This document shows positions 2,146-14,206 of a stretch of DNA of 51,014 nucleotides, piece by piece. The DNA is from a virus: positions 1-51,014 of the IMG/VR virus record IMGVR_UViG_3300046499_000562. One strand, 5' to 3'. The notes under the pieces are model-generated. The model was not told where the DNA came from and made no database searches. It saw only the letters and a list, made by a program, of their open reading frames with translations. Both the position numbers and the translations under genes were made by a program. Position 1 is the stretch's first letter; each line of letters starts with the position of its first letter.

Positions 2146-2868
2146 TCACTGCTGGCGGGTGGGTGCACCGGCCTCGCGCCAGGAGTCGACGACGGTCTTC
2201 GGGACGCGTCCGTGGGCTGGGACGTCGATGCCCGCAGCTGCGGCCCAGGTCCGGACGTCCGCGGGCTCGTAGTCCCGGGTTGCTGTCGAGGCCTTCCTGG
2301 CCGGGGCGATGGAGGCCTTCTGCTCACGCAGCTGAGCGAGGCGTTCCTCGAGGGCCGCTGTCTCCGCGTCGATGGACTTCACCCGCTCGTCAGCGGCGTG
2401 CCGCGTGCGCAGAATCTGCAGCGCGTCCTTCGCCTGTGTGGCGGCCTTGCGGATCTTCGCGTCGGTGTGGTCGGTGGCCCAGGCCAAGAGCCGTCCGACG
2501 GGAATGGGTACGGGCTCGGGGGTGCGCGGGGTGGGGATGGTGTCTTCCATGTCGGCTCTTCCTTCGGTCGGTGCGGACTCGTCGGTGATGGCATCGAGTT
2601 GGTCGAGGTGGTCGCGGAGCGTGGCGATCGCCGCGGCCGGGGTATCGGGCAGTGAAGGCAGGTCCTCGCGCTCTTGGCGGGTGAGGCCGCCCCAGACCCC
2701 GCCGGGGGCGTCAGAGTCGAGGGCGTCGTACAGGCACTCGGCGCGCACCGGACACCGCTGGCAGATCGCGATCGCCGCGGCCGTAGACCTGGCGAAGAAC
2801 AGCGACGCCCTCTCCTCGGCGCAGGCCGCGGCCGCCCGCCAGTCCTCGCGCGACACGGCCGCCGTCAT
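2146..2868 (-). CDS. WhiB-like iron-sulfur regulator fused to a C-terminal Lsr2-type DNA-binding domain
   Basis: 240 residues. The N-terminal WhiB domain has four cysteines at 16, 36, 39 and 45 (C-x19-CxxC-x5-C), as expected for a [4Fe-4S] cluster, followed by the GVWGG turn at 57-61 that is diagnostic of the family. A linker with a DILD-type helix and a long coiled-coil-like stretch (about 150-190, IDAETAALEERLAQLREQ) leads to the last 30 residues. These (DVRTWAAAAGIDVP, then HGRVPKTVVDSW) match the Lsr2 C-terminal domain, which inserts an RGR-like loop into AT-rich minor grooves. WhiB proteins usually stop after about 90-130 residues, so the fusion is unusual. It starts at ATG 2868, overlapping the upstream stop. 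It likely acts as a phage- or plasmid-borne transcription factor. Confidence 0.85.
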   Translation of the reverse strand: MTAAVSREDWRAAAACAEERASLFFARSTAAAIAICQRCPVRAECLYDALDSDAPGGVWGGLTRQEREDLPSLPDTPAAAIATLRDHLDQLDAITDESAPTEGRADMEDTIPTPRTPEPVPIPVGRLLAWATDHTDAKIRKAATQAKDALQILRTRHAADERVKSIDAETAALEERLAQLREQKASIAPARKASTATRDYEPADVRTWAAAAGIDVPAHGRVPKTVVDSWREAGAPTRQQ

Positions 2869-3083
2869 GCCACATCCCGCTTGCTGTTGGCCTGCAGGGC
2901 GACACCGACGTGGAAACCGGAGATCCCCTCCGCGAGCGTGGCCAGATGCTCGGCCTGCTCCTCTGCCGTGCACGGCGGGAGGTGCGGCGGCAGGACAGCG
3001 GCGGGCTCCAGATGCGGGGCGCGCCATGCCGTGCCGGTGGAGTGGTCCTCGTCCGGCACGGGCACCGGGGCAGCCGCGCTCAT
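2865..3083 (-). CDS. Small hypothetical protein
   Basis: 72 residues. Both ends overlap neighbours in the ATGA pattern (start 3083, stop 2865), which supports it as a coupled gene just before the WhiB-Lsr2 fusion. The N-terminal half is Pro/Ala-rich and probably unstructured. The middle (TAEEQAEHLATLAEGISGFH) looks like a short amphipathic helix. I recognise no motif. It may only serve as a spacer or partner of the regulator, but that is a guess. Confidence 0.55.
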   Translation of the reverse strand: MSAAAPVPVPDEDHSTGTAWRAPHLEPAAVLPPHLPPCTAEEQAEHLATLAEGISGFHVGVALQANSKRDVA

Positions 3084-3580
3084 GACGCGCTCTCCTCATC
3101 CGACATGCCGAAGATCGCGGCGACTTGCGCGTCGAGCGCAGCCTCCGGGTCCCTCATCGGCCAGTCGGCCAGGTGCGCTCCGGCGATACATCCCAGCTCG
3201 ATGCACGCGACGGTCACCACCCCGTACGGCGGCCGTCCGTGGTGCGCCTCGAACGTCACTCGGCGCGGGATGAAGCTCTTCCCGTCGGCGCGGAGCCGCT
3301 GCACTCCGTTGCTGGCCGGTCCGGTCCAGCGCAGGTGGCCGTCGCCGTAGGCCTTGCTGTACATCGCGAGCGCTGCGGTGATGCTCCGGCCACGCCGCAG
3401 GTTGGGGACCAGCGGGATGCCGAGCCTGGTCCGTAGGTGCGAGATGGTCGCCTCGCTGATGCCGACCTCCCTGGCGATGCGCTCGTATGTTTCGCCGGCG
3501 CGGAGCATCTCGGCGACGCGCGGCACGATGACTCGCCGCTCAGCAGGGGTGAGGACGACGCCCCTGGCCCGCCCGGTCAT
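3080..3580 (-). CDS. HTH protein with a degenerate HNH-like C-terminal domain
   Basis: 166 residues from ATG 3580. Residues 15-55 form a resolvase/sigma-type helix-turn-helix (ETYERIAREVGISEATISHL). Residues about 78-150 resemble the HNH fold of phage homing-type endonucleases (DGHLRWTGP, then FEAHHGRPPYG, VACIELGCIAGAHLAD), where intact enzymes usually read H.C....C.NP.HL. Here the first His of that motif appears to be Ala and the Asn is Gly, so nuclease activity may be lost and the protein may only bind DNA. Its start and stop both overlap neighbours (ATGA). A DNA-binding early regulator or relic homing nuclease is the best reading. Confidence 0.65.
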   Translation of the reverse strand: MTGRARGVVLTPAERRVIVPRVAEMLRAGETYERIAREVGISEATISHLRTRLGIPLVPNLRRGRSITAALAMYSKAYGDGHLRWTGPASNGVQRLRADGKSFIPRRVTFEAHHGRPPYGVVTVACIELGCIAGAHLADWPMRDPEAALDAQVAAIFGMSDEESAS

Positions 3581-3933
3581 CGGCTCGTCCTCGGCCCGCC
3601 GGGCTGTCCCCACAGGGGCGGCTGCGTGGTTGGTCGTCGGCGCGCGGGCCGAGAACGCGGAGGCGCGGCGGACTGCTGCCCGGACCCGCTGCAGCTGGAC
3701 CAGTGGGCGACCGCTTTCCACTCCAGGTACTCGGGCTCGGCCCGGTCCCGGGTCAGCTCACGGACGAGGAGACCGCCGGATCCGGTGGTGTGTGCGGCGT
3801 ACCCGCCCATGGGCGACGGCAGCGCGTTGAGCGGCATCCGCTGGCCGGAGCCGATCACGGTGGCCCAGCGGATGCGTCCGCCGCAGCGGCCACATTCGGT
3901 GACACCGCGGGTGGGATGTGGGGTGGTGGGCAT
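3577..3933 (-). CDS. Hypothetical protein with N-terminal CxxC
   Basis: 118 residues, starting at ATG 3933, which overlaps the stop of the replication-initiator-like gene, and ending in overlap with the HTH/HNH-like gene. Near the N-terminus it has CGRCGGRIRWATVIGSG followed by MPLNA. In actinobacterial phage and plasmid proteins this pattern (CxxCG, then a Met-Pro-hydrophobic stretch) forms a small zinc knuckle. The second half is Arg/Pro/Gly-rich and probably disordered. No catalytic motif is visible. It is likely co-translated with the replication gene just upstream. Confidence 0.6.
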   Translation of the reverse strand: MPTTPHPTRGVTECGRCGGRIRWATVIGSGQRMPLNALPSPMGGYAAHTTGSGGLLVRELTRDRAEPEYLEWKAVAHWSSCSGSGQQSAAPPRSRPARRRPTTQPPLWGQPGGPRTSR

Positions 3934-13995: not shown

Positions 13996-14074
13996 GCGGG
14001 GAGATTAGGCCCCGAATCGGGTGCTGGGGAGGGGGCTGTGTTCCCGACTGTTCCCAAAGGGTCCGGGCATGACG

Positions 14075-14106
14075 AAGGGCTGACCCGTTTTCACAGGTCA
14101 GCCCTT
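14075..14106. terminator. 11-bp inverted repeat next to the att core
   Basis: Perfect arms AAGGGCTGACC / GGTCAGCCCTT with a ten-base loop. On the minus strand it directly follows the tRNA 3'-end sequence, so it may be the original tRNA terminator carried on the element. It might equally be part of the integrase-binding structure. Confidence 0.6.
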
Positions 14107-14115
14107 GATCACACA

Positions 14116-14139
14116 GGGTGAGTGACGGGACTTGAACCC
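14116..14139 (-). other. attP: Attachment-site core: tRNA 3' end (probably tRNA-His)
   Basis: The minus strand reads GGGTTCAAGTCCCGTCACT followed by CACC: the 3' half of a T-stem-loop, a seven-base acceptor strand and a C at the discriminator position, which is typical of tRNA-His. No anticodon arm, D-arm or 5' acceptor strand is present in the 60 bases before it, so this is not a whole tRNA. It is a tRNA fragment of the kind that serves as the crossover core of a tyrosine integrase. The inverted sequence GTTTTCAC..AGGTCAG flanks it on both sides (14087-14101 and, with ten extra bases, 14155-14179). Confidence 0.7.
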
Positions 14140-14206
14140 AAAATTGTTACACGTCTGACCTGCGGTGATGCGTGAAAACTGGGACATAGCGGCTGCGTTC
14201 GGTGAC

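What the first reader, a model, noticed from the sequence alone, without database searches (positions are those of the whole stretch)
2146..2868. WhiB iron-sulfur domain fused to an Lsr2-type DNA-binding domain
One 240-residue frame has all four WhiB cysteines and the GVWGG turn at the N-terminus, and a 30-residue Lsr2-like C-terminal domain with HGRVP in place of RGRIP. WhiB proteins usually act through the sigma factor and Lsr2 is a xenogeneic silencer. A single protein with both would sense redox or NO through the cluster while binding AT-rich DNA. On a mobile element it could counter or redirect host silencing.
Basis: partly seen in the sequence, partly recalled or inferred. Interest (0 to 1): 0.75.

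Follow-up and report, generated by a model that had tools for sequence, protein, structure and literature searches.

The report
Phage WhiB–Lsr2 fusion with nested start
A Streptomyces temperate phage carries one gene whose protein joins an iron-sulphur sensor of the WhiB kind to the DNA-binding end of the Lsr2 gene silencer, and a conserved ribosome-binding site inside the gene suggests that the DNA-binding half is also made on its own, so one gene would give two partner regulators.

Summary
The fusion is real. It lies on the minus strand (2868→2146, 240 aa). WhiB (PF02467, E 1e-18) and the Lsr2 DNA-binding domain (PF23359, 33.3 bits against a cut-off of 26.9) both pass. The predicted C-terminus matches the solved Lsr2 C-domain (2kng, probability 0.99, 1.2 Å). 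The same fusion occurs in 12 further diverged Streptomyces phages or prophages, including isolated phage Kromp gp52, so it is not an assembly accident.

Two things were missed. First, between the domains lies a 51-residue helix in place of the Lsr2 dimerisation domain (PF11774: 0 of 22 members). Second, an in-frame start codon with a strong Shine-Dalgarno sequence precedes this helix+Lsr2 module in 27 of 27 homologues that carry the junction, with or without WhiB. The purine tract falls in all three codon phases and uses rare Arg codons (13/15 against 10/426), so selection acts on the nucleotides. The gene therefore probably makes two proteins: long WhiB–helix–Lsr2 and short helix–Lsr2.

I infer that these form mixed oligomers: a sigma-anchored, WhiB7-like regulator that uses an Lsr2-type reader. 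Redox sensing, AT preference and counter-silencing are untested. I found no description of the fusion or its nested start in the papers searched.

The parts
2146..2868 (-). Whole gene, long form: WhiB - linker - long helix - Lsr2 DNA-binding domain, 240 aa, ATG at 2868
   Evidence: start codon overlaps the stop of the upstream gene (ATGA)
2659..2841 (-). WhiB domain, residues 10-70; Cys 16/36/39/45, GVWGG 57-61; aromatic W10, F24, F25, W59
   Evidence: PF02467 E 1.2e-18; PF02467 in six-frame search of the record; phmmer to solved WhiB1 5oay E 7e-10
2584..2640 (-). Linker helix (residues about 77-95) aligned with the conserved 'leader' M/VTIAALRRLLDEID that begins the WhiB-less homologues
   Evidence: alignment; helix in model
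2556..2565 (-). Predicted internal ribosome-binding site GAAGGAAGAG (AGGA 9 nt before the internal ATG)
   Evidence: strong SD at the same junction in 27 of 27 homologues, in all three codon phases
2146..2550 (-). Predicted short form (134 aa) from internal ATG, Met107: long helix + Lsr2 DNA-binding domain, no WhiB
   Evidence: AlphaFold2 mean pLDDT 90
2308..2460 (-). 51-residue single helix (residues 137-187), proposed coiled-coil oligomerisation segment in place of the Lsr2 N-terminal domain
   Evidence: pLDDT 92-98 over most of the helix; PF11774 absent in 22 of 22; oligomerisation itself is inferred
2170..2274 (-). Lsr2-type DNA-binding domain, residues 199-233, with HGRVP at 219-223
   Evidence: PF23359 33.3 bits; Foldseek 2kng probability 0.99-1.00
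2865..3083 (-). Upstream 72-aa gene, overlaps the fusion's start by ATGA
   Evidence: no family match
3080..3721 (-). Upstream helix-turn-helix / HNH-like gene, homologous to the middle of phrog_472; fused between WhiB and the Lsr2 module in L014, L111 and L112

Best explanation
The gene is a two-product regulator of a temperate Streptomyces phage. Read from its first ATG it gives a WhiB domain joined through a linker and a long helix to an Lsr2-type DNA-binding domain. Read from a conserved internal ribosome-binding site it gives the helix + Lsr2 module alone. Shown: both domains, their in-frame fusion in many phages, the conserved internal start signal, the Lsr2 fold of the C-terminus (predicted). 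Inferred: the long helix makes coiled-coil oligomers, so the short form multimerises with the long form; the short form binds or silences DNA, while the long form brings the WhiB iron-sulphur domain to the principal sigma factor, much as WhiB7 combines a sigma-binding WhiB domain with a C-terminal AT-hook. The ratio and cluster state would then switch phage (or host) promoters between silenced and activated. My confidence: fusion 0.97; two products 0.7-0.8; sigma-anchored switch as stated 0.35. The single figure below is for 'fusion with two products, acting as a DNA-binding regulator'.
For: Domains and fold. Recurrence: 13 non-redundant WhiB-fused members out of 30 homologues of the C-terminal module. 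Internal start: SD duplex <= -6 kcal/mol in 27/27 against 9/48 other in-frame ATG/GTG codons of the same modules (p 8e-12); Arg codons just upstream are AGG/AGA in 13/15 against 10/426 elsewhere (p 4e-17); Gly GGA/GGG 10/11 against 26/186; synonymous-recoding null, Fisher p 5e-10 for all and 2e-6 for WhiB fusions; the SD core lies in all three codon phases (10/7/10), so the DNA signal and not the peptide is conserved. Kromp's internal ATG has a better SD (-8.5) than the median annotated start of that phage segment (-6.7; median of internal ATGs -2.1). In-frame joining is also kept: WhiB 13/13, leader 14/14 in frame with the module. In L010 the same leader, SD and ATG are followed by a different protein. 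WhiB sigma contacts (WhiB1 W3, F17, F18, W60; PMC10245118) are present as W10, F24, F25, W59. A plasmid carries WhiB, a GGDEF gene and a leader-Lsr2 gene as separate neighbours.
Against: No expression, binding or cluster data. For the window's own gene alone the synonymous-codon test is not significant (p 0.54); the case rests on the family. The internal starts were picked knowing the SD, though most sequences offer a single ATG there; three more homologues (L099, L100, L101) have another N-terminal part and were left out of the 27. Homologues are related, so counts are not independent. The HGR motif departs from Lsr2's Q/RGR, and the GVWGG tryptophan is R or Y in some fused relatives (L092, L105, L009, L012), so sigma binding may not be universal. 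The heptad pattern of the helix is weak.
Confidence: 0.6

Rival explanations
1. One product only: a WhiB-Lsr2 fusion made as a single chain. The internal start signal is a remnant of the time when the two parts were separate genes, and is weak or silent now.
For: The WhiB-less homologues and the separate plasmid genes show that the parts existed apart. The window's own SD is the weaker kind (-6.5).
Against: The SD is kept in every fused member despite 35-57% protein identity, in different codon phases and with rare codons; a remnant would have decayed.
Confidence: 0.17
2. Two separate genes that have merely lost the stop codon between them: the Lsr2-like module is made from its own start and the long read-through protein has no function of its own.
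For: The strong internal start, the weaker upstream SDs with ATGA coupling (mean -5.5 against -8.2), the swap of the downstream protein in L010 exactly at the internal start.
Against: All 13 WhiB fusions and all 14 leaders are in frame with no stop, though junction lengths vary in steps of three; unselected junctions would show stops or frame changes.
Confidence: 0.12
3. A decoy or dominant-negative against host WhiB proteins (as proposed for mycobacteriophage TM4 WhiB) with the Lsr2 end as a DNA anchor; the effect is on host development or superinfection, not on phage promoters.
For: TM4 WhiB represses host whiB2 and blocks superinfection (described in PMC8612146); the phage is probably temperate (integrase).
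Against: No data here bear on host targets; the gene sits in the early replication-side operon, not beside the repressor or integrase.
Confidence: 0.15
4. A counter-silencer that opposes host Lsr2 on AT-rich phage promoters (Ler-like: Ler has VGR in place of QGR and relieves H-NS silencing). This can hold together with the two-product reading.
For: HGR, VGR/VGQ and TGR in this family parallel Ler's VGR (PMC4466236); AT-rich islands lie at control regions (10.8-11.5 and 14.0 kb).
Against: No binding data; other members keep RGR.
Confidence: 0.25

Closest known systems
WhiB7/WblC (Wbl family activator with C-terminal AT-hook)
   Same: WhiB Fe-S domain with sigma-contact aromatics, followed by an AT-hook-like minor-groove reader
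   Different: Reader is a folded Lsr2-type domain, about 130 residues away behind a long helix; an internal start can release it; phage-borne
Lsr2 / CgpS xenogeneic silencers of Actinobacteria
   Same: C-terminal DNA-binding domain (PF23359, fold of 2kng)
   Different: No PF11774 dimerisation domain, long helix instead; RGR is HGR; WhiB fused in front
Ku-Lsr2 fusion of cluster J mycobacteriophages (Omega, Corndog; PMC8612146)
   Same: Phage protein with an Lsr2 DNA-binding tail fused to another domain
   Different: DNA end-joining partner rather than a WhiB regulator; no nested start reported in the passage read
PHROG 472 'WhiB transcriptional factor'; Streptomyces phage Kromp gp52
   Same: Same family, already catalogued as WhiB; covers WhiB, HTH-HNH and the C-terminal module
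   Different: Catalogue names neither the Lsr2 domain nor the internal start
Cas8b/Cas11b, Cas10d/Cas11 (internal in-frame translation; PMC11899642)
   Same: One gene, long protein and C-terminal protein from an internal start, both parts of one complex
   Different: Proven by mutagenesis there, only predicted here; unrelated proteins
Mycobacteriophage TM4 WhiB
   Same: Phage-borne WhiB regulator
   Different: WhiB domain only (from general knowledge and PMC8612146; not compared here)

Membership tests
Wbl (WhiB-like) family | Four cysteines, CxxC spacing, G[IV]W[GA]G turn | tested here: met
   C16/36/39/45, GVWGG; PF02467 67.9 bits, cut-off 23.6
Wbl (WhiB-like) family | Aromatic residues that contact sigma A region 4 (WhiB1 W3, F17, F18, W60) | tested here: met
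   W10, F24, F25, W59 in the alignment with 5oay/6ono (residues from PMC10245118); W59 is R or Y in some relatives
Wbl (WhiB-like) family | [4Fe-4S] cluster and its redox/NO response | not testable with these tools
   no biochemical data
Wbl (WhiB-like) family | C-terminal basic cluster or AT-hook directly after the turn (common, not universal, so not defining) | tested here: not met
   LTRQEREDLPSLPD follows GVWGG; the DNA-binding domain is far downstream
Lsr2 family | C-terminal two-helix DNA-binding domain | tested here: met
   PF23359 33.3 bits over cut-off 26.9; 22/22 relatives; Foldseek 2kng
Lsr2 family | N-terminal dimerisation/oligomerisation domain PF11774 | tested here: not met
   0 of 22 members; 51-residue helix instead
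[quoted passage not shown]
   HGR in the window; RGR, VGQ, VGR or TGR in relatives
Lsr2 family | Preference for AT-rich DNA and silencing | not testable with these tools
   needs binding or ChIP data
Nested (internal in-frame start) genes | Conserved start codon with SD inside the frame, beyond coding expectation | tested here: met
   not significant for the window sequence taken alone
Nested (internal in-frame start) genes | Both products observed | not testable with these tools
   needs protein or ribosome-profiling data

The most novel reading that the evidence does not exclude
A phage regulatory class in which one gene encodes both a DNA-coating Lsr2-type protein and its own sigma-factor-recruiting, iron-sulphur-gated version, the ratio being set by an internal ribosome-binding site; the silencer and its counter-silencer share one reading frame and oligomerise together, and the WhiB part has been gained or lost repeatedly on a fixed downstream module.
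Probability: 0.3. Interest if true: 0.85.

Novelty: new variant of a known kind. Interest (0 to 1): 0.6.

Why it matters
WhiB and Lsr2 proteins are among the commonest regulators in actinobacteriophages and have been studied as separate families; how phages use them is largely open. A protein that holds both ties the two together physically, and the predicted short form gives a simple, single-mutation test of whether silencing and activation are coupled in one gene. It also suggests that start-to-stop annotation hides a second product in phage, prophage and plasmid copies of this family.

Tried and rejected
Plus-strand reading of the coordinates: has a stop codon and no WhiB or Lsr2 motif. Artefact of assembly or frameshift: rejected, since the same fusion is in isolated phage Kromp and many contigs. 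Near phage relatives of the whole window: only short patches match (Kromp, VWB, Arthrobacter phages). Solved structures and NCBIfam gave no fusion precedent. Foldseek hits other than Lsr2 (GltPh, gyrase) are low-probability helix matches and were ignored. The WhiB half of the model is too poor to use. Coiled-coil heptads were weak on a simple count, so oligomerisation stays inferred. Class-wide search outside Streptomyces found nothing new (1 of 395, the known one).

Full report
What is there. The frame lies on the minus strand, 2868 to 2146, 240 aa. Its ATG overlaps the stop of the 72-aa gene before it (ATGA). PF02467 (WhiB) covers residues 10-70 and PF23359 (Lsr2 DNA-binding) covers 199-233, both above the curated cut-offs. 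Four cysteines (C16, C36, C39, C45), GVWGG and the aromatic residues that in WhiB1/WhiB3 hold sigma A region 4 (W10, F24, F25, W59) are all present (PMC10245118). The record is a virus contig of IMG/VR with a tyrosine integrase, HTH regulators, capsid, terminase, tape measure, tail-spike and endolysin genes, so the phage is probably temperate. Its scattered matches are mostly to Streptomyces phages.

The C-terminal profile match holds. AlphaFold2 on 22 window/locus sequences gives pLDDT above 90 for the C-terminal domain core and for a single helix from 137 to 187; the WhiB half is poor because the alignment is shallow there. The predicted short form alone has mean pLDDT 90. Foldseek against the PDB puts the Lsr2 C-domain first and second (2kng, 6qkp), with high probability but, for so short a domain, weak E-values.

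Relatives. One isolated phage carries a full-length relative: Kromp gp52 (41.5%), annotated 'WhiB family transcription factor'. IMG/VR and GTDB genomes give a family centred on Streptomyces (11 of 394 sampled Streptomyces genomes match strongly; 1 of 395 across the class, the one already known). Among 30 non-redundant homologues of the C-terminal module, 13 have WhiB in the same frame, three of these with a helix-turn-helix/HNH segment in between; most others start with a short leader, M/VTIAALRRLLDEID..., to which the window's linker aligns. In the tree of the module the WhiB label changes at least 6 times by parsimony (at least 2 forced by well-supported branches), so WhiB has been gained or lost more than once. 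On a Streptomyces violaceus plasmid a WhiB gene, a GGDEF gene and a leader-Lsr2 gene are separate neighbours with overlapping ends.

The nested start. Just before the module stands an in-frame ATG or GTG with a purine-rich tract at SD distance. Over 27 homologues with this junction the tract pairs with the 16S tail at -6.2 to -10.4 kcal/mol, against 9 of 48 other in-frame ATG/GTG codons of the same modules reaching -6. Rare Arg codons AGG/AGA make up 13 of 15 Arg there and 10 of 426 elsewhere. The tract is read as E-R, E-G, K-G, K-D, Q-R or E-E, that is, in all three codon phases: what is conserved is the nucleotide signal, not the peptide. A synonymous-recoding null gives p 5e-10 for the family and 2e-6 for WhiB fusions, although the window's own sequence is not significant by itself (p 0.54). 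In Kromp the internal start has a better SD than the median annotated start around it. The frame is kept as well: WhiB 13/13 and leader 14/14 are in frame with the module. In L010 the same leader, SD and ATG lead into a different protein. I conclude that both a long and a short product are probably under selection. The sequences are related, so the p-values overstate the number of independent observations.

How it may work. The short form looks like a minimal DNA-binding oligomer: long helix plus Lsr2 reader, without the Lsr2 dimerisation domain (PF11774 0 of 22). The long form adds a WhiB domain that has the sigma-contact residues. Mixed oligomers could silence or activate depending on ratio and cluster state. 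The HGR motif (VGQ, VGR or TGR in relatives) recalls Ler, which has VGR and relieves H-NS silencing (PMC4466236), so a counter-silencing role is possible. None of this is shown.

What is known. Sharma et al. 2021 (PMC8612146) surveyed WhiB and Lsr2 in 2951 actinophages and describe a Ku-Lsr2 fusion; in the sections and passages I read they do not mention WhiB-Lsr2. PHROG 472 already holds this family under the name WhiB. Internal in-frame translation of a C-terminal partner is established for Cas11 (PMC11899642). Paper searches found no account of this fusion or its nested start; the library lacks many subscription papers. I rate it a new variant of a known kind.

Noticed in passing
L010:3983-4930: WhiB-leader with the same internal SD and ATG, followed by an unrelated C-terminal protein without Pfam match: the downstream partner is swapped exactly at the internal start.
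   Followed up: partly
L014:2951-4462; L111; L112: Longer fusions WhiB - helix-turn-helix - HNH-like - Lsr2 module, like the 523-position PHROG 472; the middle part is a separate upstream gene in the window (3080-3721).
   Followed up: partly
L180:1779-3360; L181:1502-3354: Streptomyces plasmids with a GGDEF-domain gene directly before the leader-Lsr2 gene (in L180 preceded by a WhiB gene); the annotated Lsr2 gene holds an internal GTG after AAGGAG, so its annotated start may hide a shorter product.
   Followed up: partly
L013:3995-5230: A fused copy whose frame departs from the family within the Lsr2 domain (RAWARRQQRW...), a frameshift or a sequencing error.
   Followed up: no
L101:1063-2865: HTH-helix-Lsr2 gene followed by a WhiB-HNH-like fusion gene: another shuffling of the same parts.
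   Followed up: no
window:10801-11600 and 14041-14190: AT-rich islands (GC 0.53-0.55 in a 0.70 genome) near the turn between the two early operons and upstream of the integrase gene: candidate targets of an Lsr2-type reader.
   Followed up: no
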